Source: Bartonella machadoae
GTDB lineage: Bacteria > Pseudomonadota > Alphaproteobacteria > Rhizobiales > Rhizobiaceae
NCBI RefSeq assembly: GCF_022559585.1
Contig: NZ_CP087114.1
Coordinates: 2,054,501-2,118,500 of the forward strand
Length of the DNA: 64,000 nucleotides
Reading direction: 5' to 3'
Part shown: one piece after another, positions 10,971 to 49,348 of the stretch
How positions within the stretch are numbered: the first letter of the stretch is position 1
Layout: each line of letters begins with the position of its first letter
Notes under the pieces: generated by a model
Told to the model about the DNA's origin: nothing
Databases searched by the model: none
What the model saw: only the letters and a program-made list of their open reading frames with translations
Program-made: the position numbers and the translations under genes

Positions 10971-10992
10971 TTTAGACATACATTTCAAAATC

Positions 10993-11319
10993 ATGAAAGA
11001 GCGCGATAAATTAACAGAGGATACATTATTTCTTGCTTGTACACGTCCCGCAATGATTGCGGGCGTTACAGTAGAAGCCATGGGGTTAAATGCTATGGGG
11101 ACAATGATATTGTTTATTATGACAGGCAATATTTTTCTCATAACACTTGGCATTGCCATACATTTTATCTTCAAAGAAATTCTCAAGCACGACCATAACA
11201 AATTTCGTATTCTTTTTATATGGCAACAAACAACGGTTTTTTCTAGCAACTCTCATTTATGGGGCGGAGCCAGTCTTTCTCCATTGCGATTAGTTCGCAC
11301 TTATGAGGAATTGAAATGA
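10993..11319 (+). CDS. virB3: VirB3-like inner-membrane protein (VbhB3)
   Basis: 108 aa. The family opening LFLACTRPAMIAGVT is followed by a hydrophobic hairpin (GTMILFIMTGNIFLITLGIAI) and a short cytoplasmic tail. VirB3 works with VirB4 at the inner membrane in pilus assembly. The ATG at 10993 fits family length; the frame is open further upstream, inside virB2, without a good start. The stop overlaps the virB4 start by four bases, so the two are translationally coupled. Confidence 0.92.
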   Translation: MKERDKLTEDTLFLACTRPAMIAGVTVEAMGLNAMGTMILFIMTGNIFLITLGIAIHFIFKEILKHDHNKFRILFIWQQTTVFSSNSHLWGGASLSPLRLVRTYEELK

Positions 11320-11939
11320 ACAGCATAGAGCGCAAGCGTGAAAAGCAGCCGGAAGCCATTATTCCTTATGTTCGTCATGTTAACAAACATGTTATCGCAT
11401 TGGAATCTCGCGCTCTTATGACGGTTATTCAACTTGAGGGTATTAATTTTGAAACTGCTGATATAGCTGATTTAAATGTGCTTCATGAACAATTAAACAA
11501 CTTGTTTAAGAACATTGCTGATGAACGGATAGCAATTTACAGCCACATTATCAGAAAGCGTGAAACGATTTATCCGGATGGCACTTTCAGATCAGAATTT
11601 GCCAAGCAGTTAGATGATAAATACCGTGAACGGATGGTTTCTCAAGAGCTGTATCGCAATGATCTTTATCTTTCTATTTTGTGGAATCCACATGTTGATA
11701 AAGCGGATAAATTGGTTGATTTTTTTAAGCGTTTGGGAAAAGCAAAAGAGACAAAAACGGAAGTTGACTCAGAGTCTGTACGCAAGCTTGAAGACGTTAC
11801 GACGGATATTATTCAAAATTTACAGCGCTATGGGGCGAGAAAGCTTAGTCTTTATGAACATGAAGGCAATATTTTTTCACAGCAGAGTGAATTTATTCAT
11901 CAACTGGTAGGTGGGCGTCGTGAACGTACAACGTATTGA
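11316..11939 (+). CDS. virB4: VirB4 ATPase, N-terminal part, split by element 1
   Basis: Encodes the first ~204 residues of VirB4 (opening IIPYVRHVNKHVIALESRALM), with the family's N-terminal domain up to LVGGRRER. The last three codons and the stop (11928-11939) belong to the inserted element. Genuine virB4 sequence ends at the direct repeat gtgaacg (11920-11926) and resumes at 27071. Joined, 11316-11926 plus 27071-28820 give 786 codons in one frame, the normal VirB4 size. This half lacks the ATPase motifs and cannot power secretion. Confidence 0.93.
   Translation: MNSIERKREKQPEAIIPYVRHVNKHVIALESRALMTVIQLEGINFETADIADLNVLHEQLNNLFKNIADERIAIYSHIIRKRETIYPDGTFRSEFAKQLDDKYRERMVSQELYRNDLYLSILWNPHVDKADKLVDFFKRLGKAKETKTEVDSESVRKLEDVTTDIIQNLQRYGARKLSLYEHEGNIFSQQSEFIHQLVGGRRERTTY
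11920..11926 (+). repeat. Direct repeat at the left end of element 1
   Basis: gtgaacg here and again at 27064-27070. Keeping one copy restores virB4 exactly. Directly inside, the element begins acaacg-t-attgattt, whose complement (aatacgttgt) is an imperfect match to the other end (aacacgtttc). This is the arm-overlap-arm arrangement expected of a tyrosine-recombinase core site. Confidence 0.8.
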
Positions 11940-12102
11940 TTTATAATGATAATTTACTGTTTTGCATATTGAATGAGACCCCCGAATATTGTAAGATTCT
12001 CTCAATTCAAATCATCTTATGTTCAATCAATTAAAGTCACTTATTTGCACGTCATAAGTGGGGTTGGTGTGTGGGTAAAAAACAGTTTAGAAAGGAACAA
12101 AA

Positions 12103-13269
12103 ATGCCTTTAATGAATCGTCTTAATGCAAGGGCTGTCGCAACATTGGGGGCTGGCAAATATAATGATGGTGCCGGCTTGGTACTTCATAAGCGTAAAGA
12201 TGGTGGTGCTCAATGGCTTTTACGCTATACTATCCACGGGCGCCGTCGTGAAATGGGATTGGGTGCTTTAAGAAATGTCTCTTTAAAAAAAGCACGTGAA
12301 TTAGCAACTCAATGGCGTTCTGTTTTGCATGAAGGTCGTGACCCCATTAAAGAACGTGACAAACAAAAGCGTGAGGCAATGCGTAATCTGCATTATCTAA
12401 AAGATATCGCTTTAGATACTTTTGAAACTCGTAAAGCAGAATTAAAAAATGATGCTAAAGATGGGCGTTGGTTTTCACCTTTACAACTTCATATTCTCCC
12501 TAAGTTAGGTTGTATGCCGGTTTCAGAAATTACTCAAACCGATATACGCAATGTCCTCGCTCCCATCTGGCATACAAAAGCTGGAACAGCAGAGAAAGCT
12601 CTCATTCGTCTTAATATTTGTCTCAAACATACTGCTGCAATGGGATTGGATGTTGATTTACAGGCTACAGAAAAAGCAAAGGCTCTTTTAGGCAAACAAC
12701 GTCATAAAATCAAAAATAGACCAGCAATGGATTGGAAAGATATACCGGCTTTTTATAAAATACTTTGCAAAACACCAACTCTAACACAACTGGCTTTGCG
12801 TTTGCTTATTTTGACAGGTGTTCGTACCTATCCTTTGCGTCATATCCATAAAGATCAAGTTGAAGATGATATATGGACCATCCCTGCTGAAAATATGAAA
12901 GGAAAACGTGATGCTACAACAGAGTTTCGTGTGCCTTTATCAAATGAAGCATTAGAAATTTTGAAACAAGCGCGTCCTCTCTCTCGTAATGATTTCTTTT
13001 TTTCTGCAACTGGTCGTGGTCCTCTTGCTGATACTTGTATGTCACAATATATGAAAAAAATTGGACTTGAAGCCTGCCCGCATGGTTTTCGGTCTAGTTT
13101 ACGCGATTGGCTAGCAGAAACAACTGATGCCCCTTTTGAGGTAGCAGAAACCATTCTAGGTCATGTGGTCGGTGGACAAGTAGAGCGTGCTTACCGTCGT
13201 ACTGATTATTTAGAACAGCGCCGTGTTTATATGGATAAATGGGCTGCCTATGTTACGGGGCAATCTTAA
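12103..13269 (+). CDS. P4-type tyrosine integrase of element 1
   Basis: 388 aa. The N-terminus has the arm-binding domain typical of P4-like integrases (YNDGAGLVLHKRKDGGAQW). The catalytic domain shows the first Arg in LILTGVRTYPLRH, the His-x-x-Arg in CPHGFRSSLRDWL, the second His in ILGHVVGG, and the nucleophile Tyr in AYRRTDYLEQR. It should insert and excise the element by strand exchange at a ~7-base overlap. It lies 176 bases from the element end, with aaaggaac before the ATG. The element 2 copy (43659-44825) is closely similar and also intact. Confidence 0.93.
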   Translation: MPLMNRLNARAVATLGAGKYNDGAGLVLHKRKDGGAQWLLRYTIHGRRREMGLGALRNVSLKKARELATQWRSVLHEGRDPIKERDKQKREAMRNLHYLKDIALDTFETRKAELKNDAKDGRWFSPLQLHILPKLGCMPVSEITQTDIRNVLAPIWHTKAGTAEKALIRLNICLKHTAAMGLDVDLQATEKAKALLGKQRHKIKNRPAMDWKDIPAFYKILCKTPTLTQLALRLLILTGVRTYPLRHIHKDQVEDDIWTIPAENMKGKRDATTEFRVPLSNEALEILKQARPLSRNDFFFSATGRGPLADTCMSQYMKKIGLEACPHGFRSSLRDWLAETTDAPFEVAETILGHVVGGQVERAYRRTDYLEQRRVYMDKWAAYVTGQS

Positions 13270-13270
13270 A

Positions 13271-13297
13271 ATATGGGGTCTTGTACCCCATTTTTAC
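13271..13297 (+). terminator. Terminator of the integrase gene
   Basis: Stem atgggg / ccccat around tcttgta, followed by tttttac, begins a few bases after the integrase stop codon. The same hairpin is conserved after the element 2 integrase. Confidence 0.75.
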
Positions 13298-13487
13298 TTC
13301 ATTATCTGTGGATAACTTTCTCTCTTCGTTTACTCATTTTTGCTCAATAAGATTCATAAATTATCAAATGAGAAAATACATCATAAAGTACTGTTTTTTA
13401 TGATTAAACTTACTTTCAAATCTCAATAAAATATGGTTAATAAATACTTATGATTTGTTACTATTTTTAGATTGAAAGGATTTAGTT

Positions 13488-13694
13488 ATGACTGAAAATG
13501 ATGTTCTTCTTACAGACCGCGAAAGTGCAAAATTATTGCATATAAGCGTTTCAACATTCCGTCGCCATGTGACCAATGGAGCTTTACCAAAACCTTTAAA
13601 ATTTGGTTCTTTATCGCGTTGGTTAAAATCGGATCTGTTGAATGTGATTGAAAAAGCCAAAACGCAACGTCAACATCTCAGTGATGTGGCATAA
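13488..13694 (+). CDS. AlpA-like excisionase/regulator
   Basis: 68 aa with a winged-helix or helix-turn-helix of the MerR/AlpA type: LLTDRESAKLLHISVSTFRRHV, then a basic wing (LPKPLKFGSLSRWLKSDL). Such proteins bind element ends to direct excision, or activate the integrase gene. A ribosome site (gaaagga) lies upstream. It sits between integrase and primase, as in many P4-like satellites. Element 2 has the same protein. Confidence 0.85.
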   Translation: MTENDVLLTDRESAKLLHISVSTFRRHVTNGALPKPLKFGSLSRWLKSDLLNVIEKAKTQRQHLSDVA

Positions 13695-13730
13695 AAAAAC
13701 CTTGTCACGTAAGGACGGACAAGGCTTTCT
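13693..13730 (-). terminator. Hairpin with conserved loop after the AlpA-like gene
   Basis: Stem ccttgtc (13700-13706) / gacaagg (13718-13724), with seven A's before it, makes a reverse-strand terminator. The loop (acgtaaggacg) closely resembles that of the hairpin after the YdcK genes (gtcacgtaaaaatgg). The two hairpins are related sequences at distant points of the element. Confidence 0.65.
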
Positions 13731-13793
13731 CAAATTATCGTAAATTGAAAATAGCAAAAACCGTCCTGTGACGCAACGTCTAAGGATGCGAAA

Positions 13794-14198
13794 ATGTATC
13801 ATTTTATAAATGCTCGGGGCATTACAAATGCCTTGCGGGGTGTCTGGTATGGTGCTTATGGACTTGCTCGCTGCCCTGCTCATGATGATCAAGTGCCTAG
13901 TTTATCCCTTGCCAATGGAAATGATGGGCGGCTCTTGCTTTATTGTTATGCCGGCTGCTCTTTTAAAGAGATCTTACAAGCTCTTAAGAGCATTGCTCTT
14001 ATCAATACACAAACATGTTTTGATAAAACTTATGATTATAGGTTTTCTCTCTCAAAACAGTTTTGTTCTGAAGATAACAAGGCAAAACAGAAAGCAGAGA
14101 GAGCTCAAAAGATTTGGAAGCAAAGTCAACCAATTAAAGAGACCTTAGCAGAGCTTTATTTACGCAAGCGTGGTATCACTTGTAACTTGCCTCCCTAG
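13794..14198 (+). CDS. Primase, zinc-finger half (element 1)
   Basis: 134 aa opening YHFINARGITNALRGVW. A CHC2-like zinc site follows (RCPAHDDQVPSL, then LLLYCYAGCSF). It is the N-terminal part of a P4/phage-type DNA primase that starts replication of the excised element. The frame ends at CCC TAG (about 14193-14198). The Toprim half follows in the +1 frame with no missing sequence. Element 2 has the same jump at CCC CCC TAG, so either a +1 slip at CCC-U joins the halves or both inherited one mutation. Confidence 0.85.
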   Translation: MYHFINARGITNALRGVWYGAYGLARCPAHDDQVPSLSLANGNDGRLLLYCYAGCSFKEILQALKSIALINTQTCFDKTYDYRFSLSKQFCSEDNKAKQKAERAQKIWKQSQPIKETLAELYLRKRGITCNLPP

Positions 14199-14691
14199 TT
14201 TACGCTTTCATAGCAAATGCCCTCATCCCTCTGGGAAAAACATCCCCGCGTTGGTTGCTCTTGTTGAGGGTGGTGGCTCCTTTGCAATCCATAGAACCTT
14301 TTTACAAGACAATGGATGCAAAACAGAACAGTTACCAACAAAAGCGATGCTTGGCTCTGTTAAGGGCGGTGCTGTGCATTTATGCCAAGCCAATCACCAA
14401 CATCTGGTCATTTGTGAGGGAATTGAAACAGGTCTTTCTCTGCTGTCTGGTCTGTTATCAGAGCCTGTGACTTTATGGGCATCCCTCTCAACCAGTGGCA
14501 TGGTGCATGTGAATTTACCTCATATCAAATCAAAAACCCATCTCACCATAGCTATGGATGGCGATGATGCGGGTCGTAAAGCAGGTTTTGCCCTTGCTGC
14601 CCGTGCTTATCGCCAAGGCTTCAATGTCTTGATGATGCAAGCTCCCCATGGCTCTGACTTCAACATTTTATTATTAAATTATGAAAGATAA
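14170..14691 (+). CDS. Primase, Toprim half (element 1)
   Basis: Catalytic part of the primase: the glutamate motif ICEGIETGLSLLSGL and the DxD motif IAMDGDDAGRKA are both present, the metal-binding pair of Toprim domains. Natural translation probably enters from the upstream half by a frame change at about 14194; the ATG at 14170 lies in sequence that overlaps the first half. It overlaps the DUF3987 start by 11 bases, so the two are coupled. In element 2 the Toprim core is deleted. Confidence 0.85.
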   Translation: MVSLVTCLPSLRFHSKCPHPSGKNIPALVALVEGGGSFAIHRTFLQDNGCKTEQLPTKAMLGSVKGGAVHLCQANHQHLVICEGIETGLSLLSGLLSEPVTLWASLSTSGMVHVNLPHIKSKTHLTIAMDGDDAGRKAGFALAARAYRQGFNVLMMQAPHGSDFNILLLNYER

Positions 14692-16297
14692 AAAAATGAC
14701 AAAAAATATTCTAGAAAACAATGAAAATAGTTCGGTAAATGATACTGATAACGATAACAACCCTGTCTCTTTAAAAGATCATCCCTGTTTACAAGCCATC
14801 CCTTATGAACAGGCTTTGCAACAAATGGGATGGGGCGAATTAAAACCGATTAACACCGCTCTTTTACCGGTCGAGCCTTTTAATATTTTACAAATGCCTT
14901 ATAGACTAAGCAGATATGTTTACGATATTGCTGACCGTCAACAATCGCCTCTCGATTTTGTGGCTGTCTCTGCTATCTGTGCTTTAGCTGCTCTGATTGG
15001 CAATGGCGTGCGCATTGCTCCAAAACAGCATGATAATTGGTACATTGTTCCTAATCTATGGGGGGCTATTATTGGTAACCCTTCTACACGAAAAACACCG
15101 GCTTTGAAAACCGCTCTTCAACCCCTTGCTGATCTTCAAACAGAAGCTTTGCAAGCTTACCAACAAAAGAATAAACAAGCAGAGATTGAACAGGCTCTTG
15201 AGGCGCTAAACCAAAAACAAAAGAATAAACAAGCCGGCAAAGCTTTAAAGAATGGAGATACCCAAGCTGCCCGTTCTATTTTAGCTGAAAACATAACCAA
15301 AGATAACCAGCAGGATGAGGAAAATTCACGTTTTATTGTCAATGACACAACGGTCGAAAAGCTTGGAGAATTACTCAAAGAAAATCCACGTGGGTTACTG
15401 TTAGTTCGTGATGAACTTTCTGGTTTTTTAGCAAATATGGAGCGGGTTGAATATCAATCGGAGCGGGCTTTTTATTTGGAAACCTTTAATGGGGATGGTC
15501 AATTCACCTATGACCGTATTGGACGTGGAACCCTTCATATTCCCAATGCAACGCTTTCTATCATTGGAGGGATTCAACCCTTAAGGATTATGCCCCTTAT
15601 TCAGGCAATGCTTTCTGGGAAAGGAGATGATGGTTTATTGCAACGGTTTCAAATGCTGGTGTGGCCGGATGAAAACCAAGAGTGGGAATGGAAAGATAAA
15701 AATCCCAATCAAGAAGCCTATCAAGAATATGAAAAGGTGCTTCGTTCTTTTTATGACAAACCCTTAGGATCACCTAAGCACCCGCGGATCATGCGCTTTG
15801 CTGCTAATGCTCAAGAATTGTTTCGTGAATGGTGGGAAAATCATCATAAAGAAATCAAGGAAAGCAAAGTTTCTGTCTCTTACCAAGCGCATCTTTTAAA
15901 AATGCCAAAAACCATAGCAAGCCTTGCCCTCATTATCGAACTTGTTGAGGATGGGCGTTTTGAGATCACTTTGCCTTCTCTCTCAACAGCCTTGCGTTGG
16001 TCAAACTATCTGTTAAGCCATGCGAAACGGTTTTATACTGCGGGTGATATCTTGGTAAAGGAGCGTGCAAATTTGATTATAGAGCGTTGTAATTGCTTAC
16101 CTGAGGTTTTTACTGCTCGTGATATCTACAGACGCTGCTGGGCGCATTTAAAGGACAAGGAAGCGGTCAAACAAGCTTTAGAGCTTTTATGTCATACAAA
16201 CCACATTCGCAAAAAGTTCATAACCCATCAGACAAGTAAATCGAGTACCTATTATGAATGGCATCCTTTGGTAAAAAACAAGAATGCAAAGCAATGA
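14681..16297 (+). CDS. DUF3987-family replication protein
   Basis: 538 aa, DUF3987 (YfjI-like) family, usually found beside Toprim primases on integrative elements and thought to act as a primase-associated ATPase or helicase. Visible features: FVAVSAICALAALIGNGVRI, then a P-loop-like GNPSTRKTPALK, a lysine/glutamine-rich coiled stretch (about residues 150-200), and LLLVRDELSGFLANM as a Walker B-like segment. An ATG five codons downstream is an alternative start. The element 2 copy is broken by loss of one A in an A-run. Confidence 0.87.
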   Translation: MKDKKMTKNILENNENSSVNDTDNDNNPVSLKDHPCLQAIPYEQALQQMGWGELKPINTALLPVEPFNILQMPYRLSRYVYDIADRQQSPLDFVAVSAICALAALIGNGVRIAPKQHDNWYIVPNLWGAIIGNPSTRKTPALKTALQPLADLQTEALQAYQQKNKQAEIEQALEALNQKQKNKQAGKALKNGDTQAARSILAENITKDNQQDEENSRFIVNDTTVEKLGELLKENPRGLLLVRDELSGFLANMERVEYQSERAFYLETFNGDGQFTYDRIGRGTLHIPNATLSIIGGIQPLRIMPLIQAMLSGKGDDGLLQRFQMLVWPDENQEWEWKDKNPNQEAYQEYEKVLRSFYDKPLGSPKHPRIMRFAANAQELFREWWENHHKEIKESKVSVSYQAHLLKMPKTIASLALIIELVEDGRFEITLPSLSTALRWSNYLLSHAKRFYTAGDILVKERANLIIERCNCLPEVFTARDIYRRCWAHLKDKEAVKQALELLCHTNHIRKKFITHQTSKSSTYYEWHPLVKNKNAKQ

Positions 16298-16868
16298 AAT
16301 GAATGAACAAAAGATGATTTTAAAGAGTGCTGGCAAAAGAGAAAGATATGATCTGAATGGATAGTCTAACTCAGGTCATATTCTTGTCAGTCATTATTGT
16401 TGATTTACCCCCCTCATTTTAAAAAACACCTTTTAGCAAAAAGTAAAAAACATTATATTTCAATGTGTTAGTGTGTTTTGAGAAATAATCAGTGCTAATA
16501 AGATGATCTGTATAGACAATTAATGATATCAATTGAACAAAACCTGTCAGTATCTGTCAAAAAATTTAACTGACACCATTTATGATTTTAGTGATCATAA
16601 AACACTTCAAAACAATCATTTTGATCTCTTAAAACACAGTTCGAATTTGTTTTTATTTCCGTAAAATGAATAGCAAATTTCACTACTTTGCTGTTTATAG
16701 GCTGTTTATAATTGCAACTTGTTAAATTTTTTTGACGTATTTGGTGGGTTTTCGCGCCATTTTGGTTTATTGGGTACTCGATATTTGTTCTAAATGTATT
16801 TATGAAACGCCATTGTGATTCTTACACTGTTAATGAGTCAATGTCATAAGGTATGGAGTTTCTCTATA
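16298..16868. other. Gene-free region before the RM gene
   Basis: Contains the left ~207-bp inverted repeat (16383-16590), then AT-rich sequence with repeated tgtcag and ctgaca motifs, and the RM promoter region. No gene is seen. Confidence 0.7.
16383..16590 (+). repeat. Left inverted repeat flanking the RM gene
   Basis: Nearly identical, in opposite orientation, to 22325-22531. It holds a run of C's (tttaccccccctc), a poly-A/T tract and a cluster of short motifs (ctgtcagtatctgtcaa, then aactgacacc). The clustered tgtcag sequences could be iterons or an operator. The RM gene thus sits inside a ~6.1-kb inverted-repeat cassette. Confidence 0.85.
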
Positions 16869-21857: not shown

Positions 21858-22324
21858 ATTTATGAATCATGCCAATCTCATAAGAGGTATAGATCTTATA
21901 ACCATAATCTATACTCTCTTATTAGGTTGCTTACCTATAATCTTAAAAGGAGTGATTTACCATGCGCTCTTCTAAAAAGAGATGATAAGATTTTTTACAT
22001 TGCCTTTAAAAGATTAACTCGCAATCTCAAATGAGAGCATCATATCTTTCAAAAGCTCTCTTTAAAGAGAATTATGCGTATTAATAGGTTGCATTTATCA
22101 ATAGAGATTGTTTTTTGAACAATTGATAAAACATAATATATTGAAAAATAATGCTTTTTATCTTTTTAGTGTTTTTTTTCTTTAAAACACAAAGTTTCAA
22201 AACTCAAAACCCTCTTTAAATCTATAAGTTACTCTTTATAACATACCGCATAATTACAAACGGTCTTTTGAGAGGCTTTAAAGGATTATATTCCCTCTCA
22301 TAAAACATGGTTTAAACATTCATT

Positions 22325-23226: not shown

Positions 23227-23255
23227 ATAGAAACTTAATCAGTAAGGATTTAAAA

Positions 23256-33887: not shown

Positions 33888-35332
33888 AGCTAGTGTCTCC
33901 TTATCAATGTTGTCTGTTATTCTTGATACCCATCAAGGCATCGGGCGCTAACAAACACGGTGATAAGTCCGTTGCTTACACTTTTCCTTAGAAAGGTGTT
34001 GTATGGTGTAAGCACACCCGACAGAATCTTAATATACTAACAAGAGCACAAAAGACAGTCAGTATTTTAAAGTTTTGGAAAGGTTGTATCGTAACCTATC
34101 CGCTTATCATAAGTGTTTGTTAATCACTTGAGTATTTATATAGCAAATTACGTATTTATTGTCAATCATATTTTATTCTTATTTGTATTTTTTTATAATT
34201 ATTTTTTGTACCATTATGTATAAATATGTGTCATATGATTATAAATATTTTATGTTTTATTGCGTCTATTTGACTCTATATTACGCAATTGCGTTATTTT
34301 TCTCTTTTAAACATCATAATAACTAAACGAGCTCTTATGATGCCTATTTTTAACTTTATAACACATCATTATTTTTATGAGATAACTTGTGAATATTTTT
34401 GTGAATTTTTTATAAGAGCTTTGTAATTTAAACAGCTTTATAGAGACCGCGTCTTTATAACCACACCGCTTTTGATTCAAATCTATTGTTTTGATTCATT
34501 CTCTATAGCCACCGCATCATTTTTATAAAACAAACAATAATATGATCATGCGGTTTTGATTTTTATAAAAACATTTTGAATTCTTATATCCTTATCAAAA
34601 TGCCTTTTTATGGGATTTTGTCTCTTTTGTTTGTTTTGTCAGTTGATTTACCCCCCCCCTTTCATGTAAAAAAATTGATATAAAATAAAAACATTATATT
34701 TCAATAGGTTAGTATTTTTCAAAATTTTAAAATATCACGTATAAAAGCAATGTGAATAATATAGACAATTAATGACACGCATTTTGTCTGTTTTGTCAAA
34801 TTTTGTCAGTAAATTTTAACAAACAAGTGTTATGATTAGAGTGCGTGTTTAAATCATGTTTTATGAGAGGAAATATGGCTCTTTAAATGCCTTTCAAAAG
34901 ACAAGAGATGGTTATGAGGCGTGTTATAAAGAGTAACTTATCAATTTGAGCGGGGTTTTGAGTTTTGAAACTTTGTGTTGTAAAGAAAAAAACACTAAAA
35001 AGATAAAAAACAATCTCTCTTGATAAATACAACCTATTAATACGCATATTTGTCTTTAAAGAGAGCTTTTGAAAGATAAGAAAGGTATCATTTTAGATTG
35101 CGATATAATCTTTTAAAGGCAATGTAAAAAAATCTCATTCTATTTAAGATGGGATTTCTTAAAAACCTTAAAGCAATCCAAATGAGAGTGTCTAAAAGTG
35201 CAAGGCTTCTCTTTTTAGAATAGCGCATGATAAATCATTCCTTTTAAGATTATAGGTAAGCAACCTAATAAGAGAGTATAGATGATGGTTATAAGATCTA
35301 TACCTCTTATGAGATTGGCATGATTCATAAAT
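33888..35332. other. Gene-free region between YdcK genes and RM gene (element 2)
   Basis: Holds the structured RNA (33922-34022), AT-rich sequence, and a diverged copy (about 34637-34825) of the RM-flanking inverted repeat. No gene is seen. Confidence 0.7.
33922..34022 (-). ncRNA. Structured leader RNA before the YdcK gene run (element 2)
   Basis: Reverse-strand RNA with outer stem gtcggg (34022-34017) / cccgat (33945-33940), inner stem gcttaca / tgtaagc, hairpin around ctaagg, stem acgg/ccgt, and a 3' hairpin cttgat/atcaag. Against element 1 the inner stem swaps G-C for C-G and the outer stem keeps pairing through U-A and G-U. The 3' hairpin is kept in position with a different sequence. 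Confidence 0.65.
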
Positions 35333-38300: not shown

Positions 38301-40321
38301 TGAGAAACCGTGACAATATCGATAATAGAACTTACATCTTGCCCTAAGTTCATTTGATTAAGGGTTTTGCTAAAATTCTCATCATGAGAAAGCAAAGCAT
38401 TGAGAACTTGCCAAACAACACTGTATTTCTTATTGTTTTTTAAAGCCAATTCGGGGGAGATCCCAGCCGGCACGCCAACCGGTAAAATGATATAGCCTCT
38501 TTTCTTATTGGGAGCTCGACGCATCACACGCCCCACCGCTTGTATGACATCCACTTGGCTTTTGCGCGGGTGTAAAAACATCACCGCATCAAGAGCAGGG
38601 ACATCCACACCTTCTGAGAGACAGCGAACATTGGTTAAGATACGACAGGTATTTTCCCCCGCATCATCTTCCAACCATTCAAGCAATTCCGTTCGTTTCT
38701 TGGCACCATCTTTTCCATCAATATGTTGCACTTCACAGAGAAGAGGAGGTGTATCTTTGTGTTCTTTATGGATTTTACGGAAAGCTCTCTTAACACCCTT
38801 GCCTTCAAAGGTATCACGAATGCGTTGCGAGGTTTTAATATCTTTACAAAAAGCCAAGGCACGACGCATGGGATTAGGGTCATCACCAAGATCAACTTTC
38901 AGATCGATTTTGCTAAGAGCTTGGTAACAGCCTAAGATCTTTGTTCTATCATCAAGAGTAAGTTCATAATTCTTATGGTTGGTAGGAATCTCAAGAGTAT
39001 CACGTACGAACTTTTCATCCACACCCAAGACAATAATCTTATAAGGCGTTAAGAGGTCATTCTTGACGGCATCGGAGAAACTATAAAAATAGAGCTGTTT
39101 TCCATAGATTGTCTCATTATCCATAGACGCCAGAACAGCATCCAGTTCATCCGCACGCCTTTTTGCATGGTCACTAAAGATGCGCGGGGTTGCGGTCATG
39201 TAAAGTCGTTTTTTGCCCTGAATAATGCTGTTATCATGAACCTTGATAAAATCAGATTCACTTTTATCGGTTCCCAAAGCCGCCCCCGTTGTCCTATGGG
39301 CTTCATCGCAAATGATCAGATCAAATTCAGGTAAATCATGGTTCTTTTGTGCATCAGCAATCACTTGGATTGATTGGTAAGTAGCAAAAACAACATTCAT
39401 AACATGGGGAGAAACTTGATTTCCTTTCTCTCCAAGCATTTGCGCATCGGTTGTGACAGGCAAGGCAAGATCTGAAGCACTCAGTTCAGCATCATCATCA
39501 TTATTGAGACGCCGCTTGCCTATTTGCTTATCAGAACAAACCGCAAAGGAACGCAACGGGATTTGTGCATCCGCTGTCCATTCGCGTATGGTTTGTGACA
39601 TAAGAGCAAGAGAAGGTACCAAAAACAAAACACGCTTGCCTGTTCCGGCTATTTGTTCTGCTATCTTGAGACTGGTGAAAGTTTTACCCGTTCCACAAGC
39701 CATAATCAGCTTGCCACGGTCTGCTTCTTTTAAACCCTCACAGACAGCTTCAATGGCTTCTTTCTGATGGGTAAAAGGCAACTTTTGTTTCTTATCTTTA
39801 AGAACAATTTTCCCTTCTGTTTCAAAAATCCCCCAATCAATTGCACTGTTTTCCATATTGAAGAGATTAATGCGATAAACCGGAACCGCTTGTCCTTCAA
39901 TCATGGTATTGGCGTTTTCGCTTAATTCCCCTTGCGTGCTGTCAATAAGAAGGCGATATTTAAAACGATTTTTACCTGAGATGGCGATAAAGCTCTCAAT
40001 GTTCTCTTGCGTGATTTGATAATTTGTCTCATAAAATTTACATTGAATGGCGACATACTCATTGCAATCACGGATTTTTGCAACCAGATCAATATCCGTA
40101 TCTTCATCGCTTCCTTTCCATCCATGCACATCAGCCACGTCTCTATAGCTTTGGACCGTTTCATATTCTTGGCATTGGAGAGGGTCTTTTGTGAGATAAG
40201 CAATCACAAACTTTTCGAAAGCCTTTTGCTTTTCTTGATCTGAGATTGATTTTTCACGATAGGATTGTAAGAGAGAGCGTAAAGAGGATTGTTTGTTATC
40301 AAAATTGAGGGTTTGATACAT
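35333..40321 (-). CDS. Single-chain (type ISP-like) restriction-modification enzyme (element 2)
   Basis: About 1662 aa with the same domain order as the element 1 enzyme: Mrr-like nuclease, helicase (CGTGKTFTS, ICDEAHRTTG), methyltransferase (DPFTGTGAF, NPPYSVGQ), recognition region, C-terminal domain. Outside the recognition region it is nearly identical to its partner (isolated changes such as KDPLQ for QDPLQ). From about residue 1065 to 1440 the two differ at roughly every third or fourth position (for example VTNRDVWVYN against STSRDAWAYN), then identity returns. All motifs are intact, so both enzymes may be active with different targets. Confidence 0.92.
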   Translation of the reverse strand: MYQTLNFDNKQSSLRSLLQSYREKSISDQEKQKAFEKFVIAYLTKDPLQCQEYETVQSYRDVADVHGWKGSDEDTDIDLVAKIRDCNEYVAIQCKFYETNYQITQENIESFIAISGKNRFKYRLLIDSTQGELSENANTMIEGQAVPVYRINLFNMENSAIDWGIFETEGKIVLKDKKQKLPFTHQKEAIEAVCEGLKEADRGKLIMACGTGKTFTSLKIAEQIAGTGKRVLFLVPSLALMSQTIREWTADAQIPLRSFAVCSDKQIGKRRLNNDDDAELSASDLALPVTTDAQMLGEKGNQVSPHVMNVVFATYQSIQVIADAQKNHDLPEFDLIICDEAHRTTGAALGTDKSESDFIKVHDNSIIQGKKRLYMTATPRIFSDHAKRRADELDAVLASMDNETIYGKQLYFYSFSDAVKNDLLTPYKIIVLGVDEKFVRDTLEIPTNHKNYELTLDDRTKILGCYQALSKIDLKVDLGDDPNPMRRALAFCKDIKTSQRIRDTFEGKGVKRAFRKIHKEHKDTPPLLCEVQHIDGKDGAKKRTELLEWLEDDAGENTCRILTNVRCLSEGVDVPALDAVMFLHPRKSQVDVIQAVGRVMRRAPNKKRGYIILPVGVPAGISPELALKNNKKYSVVWQVLNALLSHDENFSKTLNQMNLGQDVSSIIDIVTVSQKMEIENVTTVVDDVPLQAKTESAHASFATTVRKSLSHHNGQGQLPLYKAFPNAFRAFLVKRSTMSDYWENWAGNVAEIAQNHINRLQNMLADEKSKARRAFDAFLKELQNNLNSDIKQEEAVEMLAQHLVTRPVFEALFDGNQFVQNNAISQAMEKILKELDKTNIEEDSKELKEFYDSVKFRASGITEPHARQNLIIKLYESFFAKAFKRTTDKLGIVYTPVEVVDFIIHSVDDVLRKEFSKSLGSRGVSILDPFTGTGAFITRLLQSDLIKPEDMEYKFRHDIHANEIVLLAYYIAAINIESTYHSLMKGDYIPFKHIGLTDTFQMLEEKNLLQKLFKENSEYLELQKNLNIEVIIGNPPYSVGQKNENDNAKNTPYPLLDKRIRETYAAHSKTTYVQALYDSYIRAIRWASDRIKDRGVIGFVTNASFIDANSMDGLRKCLVEEFSSLYIFHLRGNQRTSGELSRKEGGKIFGSGSRAPIAISILVKNPNAQQHGKIYFRDIGDYLTREKKLTIIETFGSIEGITWSKQGWKIITPDKHGDWLDQRNESFKTFLAIGIKKGHGKKLFENYSCGIVTNRDVWVYNSSRESLANNMGNMITFYKSEVERFNDTYPHADHKTRTKAVDDFVNSDPKKISWSLRLKQKLAKGKVFDFEESCLAHSLYRPFTQQWLYYNRTFNEMVSRIPQIFPMGKTVNNRVIQVSAIGARSGFSVLMSQNLPDLQVINNGQCFPLYIYEDVTVKKDKNEKQSHLFANSKEESKSTGLQRHDAITDEGLAHFKTAYPNEKITKDDIFYYVYGLLHSEDYRARYADNLSKELPRIPCVKSAEDFWAFVNAGRELGNLHVNYETIEPYPVTFKKGNPKLTDISNPEKFYYVTEMKFAKIKNSKEKDKSTVIYNSNIIITDIPKEAYEYIVNGKPALEWVMGRQCVKTDKKSGIVNDANRYALETIGNPAYPLELFQRVITVSLETMKIVKNLPNLELRETE

Positions 40322-40892
40322 TATAGAGAAACTCCATACCTTATGACATTGACTCATTAACAGTGTAAGAATCACAATGGCGTTTCATAAATACATTTAG
40401 AACAAATATCGAGTACCCAATAAACCAAAATGGCGCGAAAACCACTCAAATCCGTCAAAAAAATTTACAAGATGCAATTATAAACAGCCTATAAACAGCA
40501 AAGTAGTAAAATTTACTATTCGTTTTTGTGTTAATAAAAACAAATTCGATATGTATTTTAAGAGATCAAAATAAATAGTTTGAAGTGTTTTATGATCACT
40601 AAAATCATAAATGCTGTCTGTTCAATTTTTAGACAAATACAGACAAGTTTTGATCAATTGTTCCCATTAATTGTCTATATAAATCATCTTATTAGCATTG
40701 AATATTTCTCAAAACACACTAACACATTGAAATATAATGTTTTTTATTTTTATCGAAAAGTTTTTTTTAAAATGAGGGGGTAAATCAACCGACAACGACT
40801 GACAAGAATATGACCTGAGTTATGGTTATTCATTCAGGTCATATCTTTCTCTTTTGCCAGCACTCTTTAAAATCATCTTCTGTTCATTCGCT
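40322..40892. other. Gene-free region between RM gene and DUF3987 pseudogene (element 2)
   Basis: Contains the RM promoter region and the inverted repeat 40601-40806, a relative of 16383-16590. No gene is supported. Confidence 0.7.
40601..40806 (-). repeat. Inverted repeat flanking the element 2 RM gene
   Basis: Shares aaatcataaatg, taattgtctata, caaaacacactaac and the G-run ggggg with the element 1 copies. Its partner at about 34637-34825 has lost much of the similarity, so this pair is decaying. Confidence 0.75.
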
Positions 40893-42508
40893 TTATTGCC
40901 TTGCATTCTCGTTTTTTACCAAAGGATGCCATTCATAATAGGTACTCGATTTACTTGTCTGATGGGTTATAAACTTTTTGCGAATGTGGTTTGTATGGCA
41001 TAAAAGCTCTAAAGCTTGTTTGACCGCTTCCTTGTCCTTTAAATGCGTCCAGCAGCGTCTGTAGATATCACGAGCAGTAAAAACCTCAGGTAAGCATTCA
41101 CAGCGCTCTATAATCAAATTTGCACGCTCTTTTATCAGTATATCCGCAGCAGCATAAAGCCTTTTTACATGACTTAACAGATAGTTTTCCCAACGCAAAG
41201 CTGTTGAGAGAGAAGGGAGAGTGATTTCAAAACGACCCCCTTCAACAAGTTCAAAAATCAGGGCAAGGCTTGGTATGGTCTTGTCCATTTTTGCTAAATG
41301 CGCTTGTAAGGGTTCAGAGAGATCATCCCTTCTGATCTCTTTCTGATGATTTTCCCACCATTCACTAAACATCTCTTGTGCATCGGGAGAAAAACGCATC
41401 ACAATCGGGTGTTCAGGTGATCCCAAGGGTTTATCGCGAAAAGAACGAAAAACCTCTTCATAGTCTTTATAGGCATCTTTTAAGGGGTCTCTATCAATCC
41501 ATGTACATTTTTTTATCTTATCGGGCCATACCATCATTTGAAACCGTTGCAATAAACCATCATCTGCTTTTCCAGAAAGCATTGCCTGAATGATAGGAAT
41601 AATCCGAGAAGGTTGTATTCCCCCAATAATGGAAAGGGTTGCATTGGGAATATGAATCGTTCCACGCCCAATACGGTCATAGGTATAGAGTTGATCCCCA
41701 TTAAAAGTTTGTAAATAAAACCCACGGTCTGTTTGATATTCCTTAAGTTCCAAGTTTGCTAAAAAACCAGAAAGTTCATCACGAACCATCAATAATCCCC
41801 GCGGGTTTTCATTGAGTAATTCCCCAAGCTTTTCAACCGTTACATCATTGACAATAAAGCGAGAGAGGCAATCATCTTTTTCATTGTCTTTAGAAAGGGT
41901 TTCCGACAAAAGAGCATTGGCAGCCTCAGAATCTCCTTTTTTAAGAGCTTTAGAAGCTTGTTTTCTCTTTTCTTTCTGATTGAGCTCCTCAAGGATTTCT
42001 TTAATTTTTGCACGTTTTTTTGTTTTTTCCATTCTTGATACCATTCTTTTTGCAGGTGAGCGATAGGTGTTAAAGCGGCTTGCATGGCAGGTGTTTTTCG
42101 TGCAGAAGGTTGACCAATAATCATCCCCCATAGATTAGGAACAATCTTCCAATTATTACTATGCTGTTTTGGAGCGATACGAACCCCATTGCCAATCACG
42201 GTTGCTAAAGCACAGATAGCAGAGACAGCCACAAAATCGACAGGGGATTGTTGATGGTTAGCAATATCATAAATATACCTTCCCAAGACCAATGGAACTT
42301 GTGTAGCATGAAAAGGCTCGACCGGTAAAAGAGCGGTGTTAATCGGTTTTAATTCACCCCAGCCCATTTGTTGCAAAGCCTGTTCATAAGGGATGGCTTG
42401 TAAACAGGGATGCTCCTTTAAAGAGACAGGGGTGTTATCGTTATCAGTGTCATTTAAAGAAGTATTGCCATTGTTATTGGTTAAATCAGTTTTATTTTTG
42501 TGGTCCAT
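40893..42508 (-). pseudogene. DUF3987 gene broken by a one-base deletion (element 2)
   Basis: Counterpart of 14681-16297. The reading frame changes near 42015, where an A-run (reverse strand, caaaaaaacgtg) has seven A's; eight would keep the frame (KKQKKRAKIKEIL). The N-terminal part (from MDHKNKTDLT) and the C-terminal 400 residues are each open. One base undoes the damage, so slippage on the A-run might allow a little full-length protein. Confidence 0.85.
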
Positions 42509-42540
42509 AAGATATTCCTTTCAAAGGGTAAAAAATCATT

Positions 42541-43133
42541 AAAATCAGCTCCTTCGGGAGCTTGCATCATCAAGACATTGAAGCCTTGGCGATAAGCACG
42601 GGCAGCAAGCATCCATTGTCTTGTTAAAAGGTTCTATGGATTGCAAAGGAGCCACCACCCTCAACAAGAGCAACCAACGCGGGGATGGTTTTGCCAGAGG
42701 GATGGGGGCTTTGCTATGAAAGCGTAAACTAGGGGGGCAAGTTACAAGTGATCCCACGCTTGCGTAAATAAAGCTCTGCTAAGGTCTCTTTAATTGGTTG
42801 ACTTTGCTTCCAAATCTTTTGAGCTCTCTCTGCTTTCTGTTTTGCCTTGTTATCTTCACAACAAAACTGTTTTGAGAGAGAAAACCTATAATCATAAGTT
42901 TTATCAAAACATGTTTGTGTATTGATAAGACCAATGCTCTTAAGAGCTTGTAAGATCTCTCTAAAAGAGCAGCCGGCATAACAATAAAGCAAGAGACGCC
43001 CATCATTTCCATTAGCAAGAGCTAAACTAGGCACTTGATCATCATGGGCAGGGCAACGGGCTAGTCCATAAGCACCATGCCAGACACCCCGCAAGGCATT
43101 TGTAATGCCCCGAGCATTTATAAAATCATACAT
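42541..43133 (-). pseudogene. Primase gene, frameshifted and with the Toprim core deleted (element 2)
   Basis: The zinc-finger half is intact (YDFINARGITNALRGVW, RCPAHDD, YCYAGCSF) and stops at CCC CCC TAG as in element 1. After it, further frame changes follow (KAPIPLAKPSPRW), and about 300 bases holding the Toprim motifs are missing: the sequence jumps from the region of FNKTMDA to the last ~20 codons. No active primase can be made. Confidence 0.87.
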
Positions 43134-43233
43134 TTTTCTCATCCTTAGACGTTGCGTCACAGGACGGTTTTTGCTATTTTCAATTTACGATAATTTGAGA
43201 AAGCCTTGTCCGTCCTTACGTGACAAGGTTTTT

Positions 43234-43440
43234 TTATGCCACATCACTGAGATGTTGACGTTGCGTTTTGGCTTTTTCAATCACATTCAACAGATCCGAT
43301 TTTAACCAACGCGATAAAGAACCAAACTTTAAGGGCTTTGGTAAAGCTCCATTGGTGACATGGCGACGGAATGTTGAAACGCTTATATGCAATAATTTTG
43401 CACTTTCACGGTCTGTAAGAAGAACATCATTTTCAGTCAT
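43234..43440 (-). CDS. AlpA-like excisionase/regulator (element 2)
   Basis: 68 aa, identical in sequence to the element 1 protein (13488-13694) as far as I can see. Helix-turn-helix LLTDRESAKLLHISVSTFRRHV. It is followed by the same hairpin (about 43201-43235). Probably controls excision of both elements. Confidence 0.85.
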   Translation of the reverse strand: MTENDVLLTDRESAKLLHISVSTFRRHVTNGALPKPLKFGSLSRWLKSDLLNVIEKAKTQRQHLSDVA

Positions 43441-43658
43441 AACTAAATCCTTTCAATCTAAAAAGAGTAACAAATCATAAGTATTTATTAACCATATTTT
43501 ATTGAGATTTGAAAGTAAGTTTAATCATAAAAAACAGTACTTTAATATGTATTTTCTCATTTGATAATTTATGAGTCTTATTGAAACGGAATGAGAGAAC
43601 GAAGAGAGAAAGTTATCCACAGATAATGGAGTAAAAATGGGGTACAAGACCCCATCTT

Positions 43659-44825
43659 TTAAGATTTGCTCGTGACATAAGCCGCCCATTTATCCATATA
43701 AACACGGCGCTGTTCTAAATAGTCAGTACGACGGTAGGCACGCTCTACTTTACCCCCGACCACATGACCTAGAATGGTTTCAGCGACTTCAAAAGGGGCA
43801 TCGGTTGTTTCTGCTAGCCAATCGCGTAAACTAGACCGAAAACCATGCGGGCAGGCATCAAGTCCAGTTTGTTGCATATATCGTGACATACACCTCTCAC
43901 CAAGGGGACCACGACCGGTTGCAGAAAAAAAGAAATCATTGCGAGATAGCAGACGTGCTTGTTTCAAAATTTCCAATGCTTCTGTTGATAAAGGCACGCG
44001 AAATTCTGTTGTAGCATCACGCCTTCCTTTCATATTCTCAGCAGGGATGGTCCATATATCATCTTCAACTTGATCTTTATGGATATGACACAAGGGGTAG
44101 GTACGAACGCCTGTAAGAATAAGTAGACGCAAAGCCAGTTGTGTTAGGGTTGGTGCTTCGCAGAGTGTTTTATAAAAAGCCGGTATATCTTTCCAATCCA
44201 TTGCTGGTCTATTTTGCGTTTTATGGCGTTGTTTCCCTAAGAGGGCGCGTGCTTTTTCTGTTACTTGTAAATCAACATCCAAACCCAAGGCAGCAGCATG
44301 TTTGAGACAGAGATTAAGGCGGTTTAGTGCTTTTCCAGCTGTCCCAGCTTTTGTATGCCAGATGGGAGCGAGCACATTGCGTATATCATTTTGGGTAATC
44401 TCTGAAACGGGGAGACAGCCTAATTTAGGGAGAATATGAAGTTTTAAAGGTGAAAACCAATTCCCATCTTTACCATCTCCTTTTAATTCAGCTTTACGGC
44501 TTTCAAAAGCATCCAACGCAATATCTTTTAAATAATGGAGATTGCGCATTGCCTCACGCTTTTGTTTGTCACGTTCTTTAATGGGGTCACGACCTTCATG
44601 CAAAACAGAACGCCATTGAGTTGCTAATTCACGTGCTTTTTTTAAAGAGACATTTCTTAAAGCACCCAATCCCATTTCACGACGGCGCCCGTGGATAGTA
44701 TAGCGTAAAAGCCATTGAGCACCACCATCTTTACGCTTATGAAGTAGCAAGCCGGCACCATCATTATATTTGCCAGCCCCCAATGTTGCGACAGCCCTTG
44801 CATTAAGACGATTCATTAAAGGCAT
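43659..44825 (-). CDS. P4-type tyrosine integrase (element 2)
   Basis: 388 aa, intact and close to the element 1 integrase. Catalytic residues are present in LILTGVRTYPLCH, CPHGFRSSLRDWL, ILGHVVGG and AYRRTDYLEQR. Differences cluster in the central region (for example MSRYMQQTGLDACP for MSQYMKKIGLEACP). It ends with the same terminator hairpin (about 43634-43660). It should act on its own ends and probably those of element 1. Confidence 0.92.
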   Translation of the reverse strand: MPLMNRLNARAVATLGAGKYNDGAGLLLHKRKDGGAQWLLRYTIHGRRREMGLGALRNVSLKKARELATQWRSVLHEGRDPIKERDKQKREAMRNLHYLKDIALDAFESRKAELKGDGKDGNWFSPLKLHILPKLGCLPVSEITQNDIRNVLAPIWHTKAGTAGKALNRLNLCLKHAAALGLDVDLQVTEKARALLGKQRHKTQNRPAMDWKDIPAFYKTLCEAPTLTQLALRLLILTGVRTYPLCHIHKDQVEDDIWTIPAENMKGRRDATTEFRVPLSTEALEILKQARLLSRNDFFFSATGRGPLGERCMSRYMQQTGLDACPHGFRSSLRDWLAETTDAPFEVAETILGHVVGGKVERAYRRTDYLEQRRVYMDKWAAYVTSKS

Positions 44826-45000
44826 TTTTGTTCCTTTCTAAACGGTTTTCTACCCACACGATAACCCCGCTTATGACGTGCAAATAGGTGACTTTAATTG
44901 ATATAAAATGGAATGATTTGAGATGAGAGAATCTTACAATATTCGGGGGTCTCATTCAATATGCAAAACAGTAAATTATCATTATAAATCAATGCGTTGT

Positions 45001-45008
45001 CAGCAAAA
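45001..45008 (+). repeat. Direct repeat at the right end of element 2
   Basis: cagcaaaa, partner of 29176-29183. The element ends just before it (acaacgc on the reverse strand) and virB5 resumes after it. Confidence 0.8.
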
Positions 45009-45409
45009 ACACTGAAAAATGGAAAGAAAAGCTTTTATACAAAGAGCCATCTGGCGGAGCGGGTTCAAAAGCTGCCGTTGATGCATTTTATGAACAAGAA
45101 GTTAAAAAAGCACAACAAAGCATGATAGGACAAGCCGCGACAGGACAAGCCGTTTACGAAGAAGCAAGTGAAACACAAAAATCCATTACAAAACTTCTGG
45201 ATGAACTTGGAAGTACTGAAGATGCTGGTAAAATTCAAGGCATTCAAGCAAAATTAGAAGCGATACAAGCAAAACTCCAAACCCAAGTCTTGCAAATGCA
45301 AGCCACCGCCATGATTCAACAAGCAGAAGACAAAGCCAGAGAACAACGTGAAGCGGAAGAATTTAGAGCACGATATGCAGATTTTGCTAAACAACTGCGT
45401 GGTCAGTAA
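45009..45409 (+). CDS. virB5: VirB5-like minor pilin, C-terminal part
   Basis: Continues VirB5 from NTEKWKEKLLYKEPSGGAGSK through a long amphipathic helical region (KIQGIQAKLEAIQAKLQTQVLQM) to FAKQLRGQ. It has no start of its own at the junction; an internal ATG at 45122 is unlikely to make a useful product without a signal peptide. Full VirB5 needs precise loss of element 2. The first EexN-like gene follows 23 bases later. Confidence 0.9.
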
Positions 45410-49345: not shown

Positions 49346-49348
49346 TCC

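What the first reader, a model, noticed from the sequence alone, without database searches (positions are those of the whole stretch)
11316..45409. Two inverted elements of one family each split a T4SS gene, and removing either restores the gene exactly
Element 1 sits in virB4 between gtgaacg repeats; element 2 sits in virB5 between cagcaaaa repeats. Joining 11926 to 27071 gives a 786-residue VirB4, and joining 29183 to 45009 gives a 255-residue VirB5, both in frame and with no missing residue. Two independent hits in consecutive genes of one transfer operon, both reversible on paper, suggest the elements may act as on/off switches for conjugation and toxin delivery, or as parasites that silence their vehicle while resident.
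Basis: partly seen in the sequence, partly recalled or inferred. Interest (0 to 1): 0.9.

Follow-up and report, generated by a model that had tools for sequence, protein, structure and literature searches.

The report
Restriction islands splitting conjugation genes
In a Bartonella genome, two copies of a 15-kb mobile DNA island, each carrying its own DNA-cutting-and-marking enzyme, have landed inside two neighbouring genes of a DNA-transfer machine; about twenty such enzymes sit in this genome, most of them with a different DNA-reading part, which points to self-maintaining parasites rather than a built-in switch.

Summary
Two inverted ~15-kb elements of one family split virB4 and virB5 of a Vbh-like T4SS in a Bartonella genome. 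The virB4 halves lie one codon apart in 22 of 22 (203+1+582=786). The virB5 halves do so end to end in 3 of 22, because the site is in a variable linker (122+1+132=255).

Exact restorability follows from site-specific integration and is no evidence for a switch. The family (integrase, small HTH, primase/helicase genes, type ISP restriction-modification enzyme, beta-solenoid proteins) has 18 complete copies here. Most named targets are prophage genes. In 12 of 18 copies a 7-bp overlap is repeated exactly at both ends.

The unexpected part is the enzyme. All 21 type ISP genes found at E<=1e-40 are open, while the Toprim gene is broken in 17 of 18 elements. Among 18 copies the recognition region forms 16-17 types at 80-95% identity. 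Two copies identical at DNA level over residues 30-850 still differ there.

Best reading: selfish restriction islands that use mobile genes as landing sites and break them. No excised form was seen; a switch is unsupported.

The parts
10822..11319 (+). virB3-like gene upstream of the split virB4
   Evidence: Pfam VirB3 3e-23
11316..11926 (+). 5' part of virB4 (203 codons plus part of the next); the ORF runs a few codons into element 1 and stops at 11939
   Evidence: maps to residues 1-203 of 22 uninterrupted relatives
11920..11926 (.). left copy of the 7-bp direct repeat of element 1
   Evidence: sequence; register test
11927..27070 (+). element 1 (one repeat copy included)
   Evidence: both ends shared with the other complete own-genome copies
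12103..13269 (+). element 1 tyrosine integrase, 388 aa
   Evidence: Arm-DNA-bind_3, Phage_int_M, Phage_integrase
13488..13694 (+). element 1 small HTH protein in AlpA/excisionase-like position (role inferred)
   Evidence: HTH_17 2.4e-6
13794..14691 (+). element 1 Toprim primase gene, broken into two ORFs (13794-14198 and 14170-14691)
   Evidence: DUF7146 positions 2-36 in one ORF, 37-105 plus Toprim in the next; a full-length frame in 1 of 18 own copies
14681..16297 (+). element 1 DUF3987 protein, 538 aa, intact
   Evidence: Pfam 1.2e-79
16815..21857 (+). element 1 type ISP restriction-modification enzyme, 1680 aa, intact
   Evidence: Mrr_cat_2, ResIII, ISP_coupler, N6_Mtase, Type_ISP_C; LlaGI/LlaBIII chains E=0
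23256..26162 (+). four beta-solenoid (YdcK/hexapeptide-like) proteins of element 1
   Evidence: Pfam
27064..27070 (.). right copy of the direct repeat of element 1
   Evidence: sequence
27071..28820 (+). 3' part of virB4 (582 codons)
   Evidence: CagE_TrbE_VirB and TraG P-loop; maps one codon after the N-piece in 22 of 22 relatives
28817..29183 (+). 5' part of virB5
   Evidence: Pfam T4SS
29176..29183 (.). first copy of the 8-bp direct repeat of element 2
   Evidence: sequence
29184..45008 (-). element 2, inverted relative to element 1 (one repeat copy included)
35333..40375 (-). element 2 type ISP enzyme, 1680 aa, intact, with a different recognition region
   Evidence: PADLOC REase_MTase models; identity profile
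40893..42508 (-). element 2 DUF3987 gene, broken into two ORFs
   Evidence: Pfam: profile positions 1-99 and 54-363 on separate ORFs
43659..44825 (-). element 2 integrase, 388 aa, 91% identical to that of element 1
45001..45008 (.). second copy of the direct repeat of element 2
   Evidence: sequence
45009..45409 (+). 3' part of virB5
47440..52639 (+). virB6, virB8, virB9, virB10, virB11, all open
54533..56048 (-). BID-domain ORF (54533-55207) and Fic-domain ORF (55296-56048), two separate ORFs
   Evidence: Pfam; described only
56754..60452 (-). MobA/MobL relaxase with helicase and BID domain, 1232 aa
61146..63062 (+). VirD4/TraG coupling protein, 638 aa

Best explanation
Both elements belong to a multicopy family of ~15-kb integrative restriction islands of Bartonella. 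An element-coded tyrosine integrase recombines an element end with a target that shares a 7-10 bp overlap, often inside a gene of another mobile element. This splits the gene and leaves the overlap as a direct repeat. Most targets that could be named are prophage genes; here two copies hit virB4 and virB5 of a Vbh-like conjugation/effector T4SS. Inferred: the islands persist because each carries a single-chain type ISP restriction-modification enzyme with its own target specificity, and recombination keeps exchanging the recognition region among otherwise similar enzymes. Inferred: the T4SS is off while the elements are resident; recovery by excision is possible in principle but rare or lost. 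Shown: insertions, repeats, gene content, copy number, open enzyme genes, exchanged recognition regions. Not shown: integrase activity, excision, restriction activity, specificities, addiction.
For: 18 complete copies in one genome measure 14.6-15.8 kb and the other 17 align co-linearly with E1 over 12.6-15.6 kb at 84-94% identity. The overlap repeat is exact in register in 12 of 18. The same overlap GTGAACG serves three copies in two different target genes, virB4 and a phage SU10-adaptor-like gene. Named targets: portal, terminase, adaptor, DNA ejection, tail, repressor-like, Rha and RecE/YqaJ genes, and the family's own type ISP gene. Type ISP genes are open (at least 1652 aa, no stop) in 21 of 21 places with E<=1e-40 in this genome and have frames of at least 1500 aa in 37 of 37 complete elements, while the Toprim gene has a full-length frame in 1 of 18 own copies. 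E1 and E2 enzymes are 92-100% identical per 50 residues up to about residue 1050 and 94-97% from about 1500, but 64-86% between 1050 and 1450. L084 and L086 have dS=0 over residues 30-850 but dS 0.54-0.64 in the recognition region. Of 31 own pairs at least 93% identical in the N-terminal part, 30 are 78% or less in the recognition region. At 80-95% identity the 18 copies fall into 16-17 recognition types but 2-3 types for the methyltransferase core. The same contrast occurs in G066 (99/67 and 100/70 per cent) and G055 (100/73). In LlaGI the base-reading loops lie at residues 1017-1374 (PMC4872093, passages seen); by the NPPYS motif the offset to E1 is 34.
Against: No end-to-end junction was found (exact pattern, E1/E2-like ends only), so present mobility is unproven. 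The enzymes are not uniform outside the recognition region: over all 153 own pairs the median identity is 70% in the N-terminal part, 86% in the core, 69% in the recognition region and 94% at the C-terminus, and there are five N-terminal types. At looser cut-offs the recognition types merge: 10 at 75%, 1 at 70%. Nearly identical recognition types co-occur (one own pair of 153 at or above 90%), and pairs with equal scores occur in G055 and G066, which argues against strict incompatibility. In other genomes several type ISP places have short frames; many lie on small contigs, but G011, G055 and G064 have them (771-1479 aa) on large contigs. 6 of 18 copies lack the exact 7-bp repeat. Restriction activity and addiction are inferred only. 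Flank ORFs were mostly chosen by length, so target classes are not an unbiased sample.
Confidence: 0.7

Rival explanations
1. Regulated switch (active-lysogeny type): the elements excise on a cue, restore virB4 and virB5 and turn conjugation and effector delivery on, then reinsert.
For: Exact repeats, and one-codon spacing of the virB4 halves. Integrases of both elements and the small HTH protein of E1 are open. The virB4 halves show dN/dS 0.055 and 0.046 against 16 relatives, compared with 0.057 and 0.033 among relatives. A review passes on the proposal that excision restores the ICE for elements inside traG (PMC5704250, section 13 read).
Against: The target is not dedicated: sister elements sit in many unrelated genes. 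Both elements would have to excise together. No end-to-end junction was found. Vbh-type virB4 is uninterrupted in 22 other genomes, so the switch is not a conserved feature. A recent insertion also explains the constraint result.
Confidence: 0.08
2. Inert wreckage: a decaying vbh cluster collects insertions; elements are fixed and T4SS loss is neutral.
For: A paper calls chromosomal vbh clusters of B. tribocorum and B. vinsonii 'in a process of deterioration' (PMC3610622, passages seen). Five other genomes (G016, G020, G051, G066, G070) hold partial or broken Vbh-like virB4 pieces at 90-95% identity (causes not examined). Fic and BID domains lie on two ORFs here. Replication genes of both elements are broken. 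Integrase fragments litter the genome (153 matches, most partial).
Against: virB3, virB6, virB8-virB11, relaxase and VirD4 are open and the four split pieces carry no stop. Type ISP genes of this genome and nearly all integrases of the complete elements are open.
Confidence: 0.3
3. Phage-satellite (P4/PICI-like) islands that ride helper-phage or GTA particles; uniform ~15 kb reflects a capsid limit.
For: Integrase, AlpA-like HTH and primase/helicase modules; sizes 14.1-15.9 kb in 36 of 37 complete elements; B. grahamii prophages of 44 and 47 kb and 14-kb GTA fragments; insertion inside prophage genes.
Against: No capsid, terminase or size-redirecting gene among the ten E1 ORFs scanned. A nearly constant gene set by itself explains the uniform size. 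E1 and E2 exceed 14 kb.
Confidence: 0.12
4. Host-beneficial defence: the cell keeps many specificities as an anti-phage/anti-plasmid barrier, and insertion into rival mobile elements disarms them.
For: Type ISP genes of this genome are open and diversified; many targets are mobile genes.
Against: The same data fit selfish maintenance; insertion in mobile genes may only reflect tolerance. 33 of 71 Bartonella genomes have no or one type ISP gene at E<=1e-40.
Confidence: 0.3

Closest known systems
IMEs inserted in conserved genes of Tn5252-superfamily ICEs (traG/VirD4, SNF2, Maff2) in Firmicutes
   Same: Small integrative elements disrupt conserved genes of a conjugative element and could in theory restore them on excision (PMC5704250 section 13).
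   Different: No relaxase was found in E1. The overlap and target vary from copy to copy, most named targets are prophage genes, and each complete copy examined carries a type ISP enzyme.
LlaGI/LlaBIII type ISP restriction-modification enzymes
   Same: Homology over nearly the full length and the same domain order; close homologues with different targets are known (PMC4872093, passages).
   Different: About twenty copies with mostly different recognition regions co-reside in one genome; the 18 in complete elements each sit on their own integrative element.
P4-like satellites and PICIs (recalled)
   Same: Integrase, AlpA-like regulator, primase/helicase, no own virion.
   Different: No packaging-interference genes found in E1; targets are protein genes, mostly of other mobile elements where named.
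Restriction-modification genes on mobile elements as addiction modules
   Same: Genetic addiction and stabilisation of mobile elements are described for such genes (PMC4176335, passages).
   Different: Here one element family has multiplied within a genome with a different recognition region in most copies; addiction itself was not tested.
fha-repeat of B. grahamii
   Different: Different cargo; whether it shares this integrase was not tested.

Membership tests
Type ISP restriction-modification enzyme | single chain with Mrr-type nuclease, SF2 helicase, coupler, adenine methyltransferase and recognition domain | tested here: met
   Pfam domains in order; LlaGI and LlaBIII chains E=0
Type ISP restriction-modification enzyme | methylates and cuts DNA | not testable with these tools
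   no activity data
Tyrosine-integrase integrative element | integrase at one end, conserved ends, short direct repeats at both junctions | tested here: met
   repeat exact in 12 of 18, absent or imperfect in 6
Tyrosine-integrase integrative element | excision as a circle | tested here: inconclusive
   no match to an exact end-to-end pattern in 71 genomes or IMG/VR; assemblies would rarely show a circle and the pattern fits only E1/E2-like ends
Integrative and mobilizable element (IME) | own relaxase | tested here: not met
   no MOB family among the ten E1 ORFs scanned by Pfam
Integrative and mobilizable element (IME) | oriT | not tested
   no search was made
ICE | own complete conjugation machinery within the element | tested here: not met
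   none among the ten E1 ORFs; no large frame outside the E1 gene families in 37 complete elements
P4-like satellite / PICI | genes that hijack helper capsids or packaging | tested here: not met
   none found by Pfam in the ten E1 ORFs
P4-like satellite / PICI | integrase, AlpA-like regulator, primase/helicase | tested here: met
   Toprim gene broken in 17 of 18 own copies
Developmental/active-lysogeny switch | regulated excision restoring the host gene | not testable with these tools
   needs reads or expression data
Vbh-type T4SS of Bartonella | VirB proteins and VirD4 with BID-domain relaxase and Fic/BID genes nearby | tested here: met
   VirB3-VirB6, VirB8-VirB11, VirD4, relaxase, Fic and BID domains found; not compared with a named vbh record, and VirB2 and VirB7 were not identified

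The most novel reading that the evidence does not exclude
A self-diversifying family of addictive restriction islands: each new copy can settle only if its enzyme reads a new DNA word. Integration into conjugation and phage genes goes together with fast exchange of the recognition region, so one 2.7-Mb genome carries about 21 co-resident type ISP enzymes, with 16 or more recognition types among the 18 compared. The islands thereby both break rival mobile elements and build a stacked epigenetic barrier.
Probability: 0.32. Interest if true: 0.78.

Novelty: new variant of a known kind. Interest (0 to 1): 0.6.

Why it matters
If the diversified recognition regions mean different specificities, this genus is a natural experiment on restriction-modification selfishness: many copies of one enzyme, on one kind of mobile element, in one cell. 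It makes the old question of whether such systems exclude copies of the same specificity directly testable by methylome sequencing. It also shows how conjugation and prophage modules are broken by smaller elements nested in them, so 'exactly restorable' insertions should not be read as switches without evidence of excision.

Tried and rejected
Switch reading: rejected as the main explanation because targets are many and unrelated. Capsid-size reading of the uniform 15 kb: weakened because the gene set is nearly constant (integrase, HTH, type ISP and solenoid genes in 37 of 37, at least part of DUF3987 in 37; Toprim undetected in five foreign copies). Enrichment of portal or other morphogenesis genes among targets: not claimed, because flank ORFs were mostly picked by length. 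T4SS as a preferred target: not supported; 2 of 18 own copies, and among 95 left flanks the window's T4SS proteins matched only at E1 (the query set lacked the virB5 3' piece, so E2's own flank was not expected to match). Circle/tandem search: nothing. The S. meliloti relative of the integrase (63%) sits with an AlpA gene but different cargo. Integrase against the PDB: no match at 1e-5. Rfam at gathering scores: nothing. tRNA: none. Rows dropped: foreign element L158 (right end mispaired, 3.8 kb); seven integrase hits without a recognisable left end and three loci with N runs at the junction, L010, L025, L035; only 80 of 340 genome contigs relatives were returned; 30 of 39 foreign flank ORFs of 60 aa or more were scanned.
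Full report
WHERE. The window is G000:C1:2054501-2118500 of a 2.71-Mb single-contig genome. The best 80 of 340 relatives of the integrase in genome contigs are all Bartonella. The genome holds three VirB4 matches; the one in the window is split.

OBSERVATION. Element 1 lies in virB4 and element 2, inverted, in virB5. Repeats are at 11920-11926/27064-27070 and 29176-29183/45001-45008. Searched apart on 22 uninterrupted relatives (virB4 pieces 73-96% identical), the virB4 pieces lie one codon apart in 22 of 22. The virB5 pieces lie one codon apart end to end in 3 of 22 (L112, L116, L124), with alignment drift in the variable linker in the rest. The rest of the cluster (virB3, virB6, virB8-virB11, VirD4 and the MobA/L relaxase with a BID domain) is open. 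The Fic and BID domains lie on two ORFs and are only described.

THE ELEMENT. E1 carries, in order, a tyrosine integrase, a small HTH protein, a broken Toprim primase gene, a DUF3987 protein, a 1680-aa type ISP restriction-modification enzyme and four beta-solenoid proteins. E2 is co-linear, with its Toprim and DUF3987 genes broken. No relaxase, capsid or conjugation gene was seen among the ten E1 ORFs scanned.

THE FAMILY. In this genome 23 integrases score E<=1e-150, and there are 153 matches in all (150 of 205 first-look candidates scored), most of them fragments. 18 copies have both ends and measure 14.6-15.8 kb. In the genus 35 of 71 genomes have an integrase at E<=1e-150 and 38 of 71 have the right end at E<=1e-15. 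Of 20 foreign stretches fetched, 19 gave complete elements (18 of 14.1-15.9 kb, one of 18.7 kb) and one was dropped as mispaired. All 37 have integrase, HTH, type ISP and solenoid matches and at least part of DUF3987; five foreign copies show no Toprim match.

ENDS AND TARGETING. The left end is conserved from just after the overlap. The overlap differs between copies but is the same at both ends of most: 7 of 7 bases in 12 of 18. In mixed pairs a run of 7 or more occurs in 13 of 306, and 10 of these 13 join copies with a shared overlap. GTGAACG serves E1 in virB4 and L084/L085 in an SU10-adaptor-like gene. Uninterrupted virB4 alleles keep GTGAACG in 14 of 22 Vbh-type relatives and 20 of 29 relatives in all. 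Six copies lack an exact repeat; in L096 and L097, which are inverted to one another, both left ends agree and both right ends agree instead. Recombination between copies is a likely but untested cause.

TARGET GENES. Of 18 own copies: T4SS 2 (window). Phage families with a named function 7: L084 and L085 adaptor (same flanks), L086 left flank tail (its right flank is an MFS transporter), L088 tail, L090 repressor-like, L092 terminase, L101 portal. SSB 1 (L095), phage family of unknown function 1 (L096), methyltransferase/DUF2087 flanks 1 (L087). L100 and L103 gave no match, and L089, L094, L097 and L099 have short flank ORFs and were not scanned. Of 30 foreign left-flank ORFs scanned (of 39 of 60 aa or more), 19 match phage families (nine are portal, terminase, ejection, adaptor or tail), 2 are the family's own type ISP gene, 1 a filamentous haemagglutinin, 1 a D12 methyltransferase and 7 unmatched. 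Three of the 19 (L014, L020, L034) match DNA-methyltransferase or HTH families that also occur outside phages. ORFs were mostly chosen by length, so no gene class is claimed to be enriched. Tolerance of insertion in dispensable mobile genes may explain the list.

THE ENZYMES. Type_ISP_C finds 21 places at E<=1e-40 in this genome (22 candidates), all in frames of 1652 aa or more without a stop, and at least one place in 51 of 71 Bartonella genomes; the control rings in 3 of 14 well-known genomes. In other genomes shorter frames occur, many on small contigs but some on large ones (G011 771 and 1064 aa, G055 931, G064 1479 twice). In the 37 complete elements the type ISP frame is at least 1500 aa in 37. 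The integrase frame is at least 369 aa in 36 of 37, but the elements were found through it, and L159 and L160 are listed with a stop. In the 18 own copies DUF3987 is open in 16 and Toprim in 1. In this genome the enzyme is thus kept while the Toprim gene decays.

RECOGNITION REGION. E1 and E2 are 92-100% identical in 50-residue steps up to about residue 1050 and 94-97% from 1500, but 64-86% between 1050 and 1450. The 18 copies form five N-terminal types. In the seven copies of the largest type, 4-6% of positions vary over residues 1-1000 but 34-61% over 1046-1450; over all 18 copies the contrast is weaker (32-68% against 50-75%) because the N-terminal types differ. Median identities over 153 own pairs are N-part 70, core 86, recognition 69, C-terminus 94. 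Of 31 pairs at 93% or more in the N-part, 30 are 78% or less in the recognition region; the exception is L085/L089. L084 and L086 have dS 0 over residues 30-850, 0.31 over 850-1030, and 0.54-0.64 with dN 0.13-0.21 in the recognition region. This points to exchange or homogenisation by recombination, not slow drift. Clustering gives 16 recognition types at 80-85%, 17 at 90-95%, 10 at 75% and 1 at 70%, against 1-3 for the core. G066 and G055 show the same contrast (99/67, 100/70, 100/73 per cent core/recognition); in G025 the closest core pair is 86/50. In LlaGI the base-reading loops are at 1017-1374 (PMC4872093, passages), E1 being offset by 34 at the catalytic motif; loop II has 14 distinct strings in 18 copies, loop I 7 and loop III 10. 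Equal-scoring pairs in G055 and G066 suggest that same-type copies can co-occur.

SWITCH OR NOT. dN/dS of the virB4 pieces against 16 relatives is 0.055 and 0.046; among relatives it is 0.057 and 0.033 (dS is high, 0.6-1.2). So the halves have not visibly decayed. A recent insertion explains this; occasional excision would too. No end-to-end junction matched an exact pattern in 71 assemblies or IMG/VR, which is weak evidence. In 22 other genomes virB4 of this type is uninterrupted; five more hold partial or broken pieces whose cause I did not examine.

LITERATURE. Passages seen: vbh clusters of B. tribocorum and B. vinsonii 'in a process of deterioration' and GTA fragments of 14 kb (PMC3610622); B. 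grahamii islands, prophages and fha-repeat (PMC2697382); type ISP recognition (PMC4872093); restriction-modification addiction on mobile elements (PMC4176335). Section 13 of PMC5704250 was read, with passages: IMEs inside traG and a proposal that excision restores the ICE. My ten searches listed no title or abstract start that points to this element family; I saw only listings for the other papers, and the library lacks most subscription journals.

VERDICT. Observation confirmed; switch not supported; parasite reading supported and extended to a family of restriction islands with exchanged recognition regions.

Noticed in passing
27071-29175, between elements 1 and 2: The two elements are ~15-kb inverted repeats (about 90% identical) around 2.1 kb that hold the virB4 3' part and virB5 5' part; homologous recombination between them could flip that segment.
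   Followed up: no
11927-27070 and 29184-45008: Both inserts have lengths divisible by three (15144 and 15825 bases); in-element stops make this meaningless and it is probably chance.
   Followed up: no
G000:C1:2120561-2121742 (about 2 kb right of the window): A further type ISP recognition domain in an open 1659-aa frame, on the minus strand, lies just beyond the window's right end.
   Followed up: no
54533-56048: Fic and BID domains are on two neighbouring ORFs, and the long relaxase gene also carries a BID domain.
   Followed up: partly
23256-26162 and 30082-33887: Each element carries several beta-solenoid (YdcK/hexapeptide-like) proteins with repeats spaced in 18-nt steps; the extent of the matches varies between copies.
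   Followed up: partly
L096 and L097: Two inverted own-genome copies share unequal left and right overlap sequences, as if formed with a mismatched overlap or by recombination between copies.
   Followed up: partly
L064 and L044: In two other genomes the island's left end abuts a truncated type ISP reading frame of its own kind, so it seems to have inserted into one.
   Followed up: no
45408-45815: Two copies of a 139-nt repeat (84% alike) in small genes just after virB5 that look lipoprotein-like by eye.
   Followed up: no
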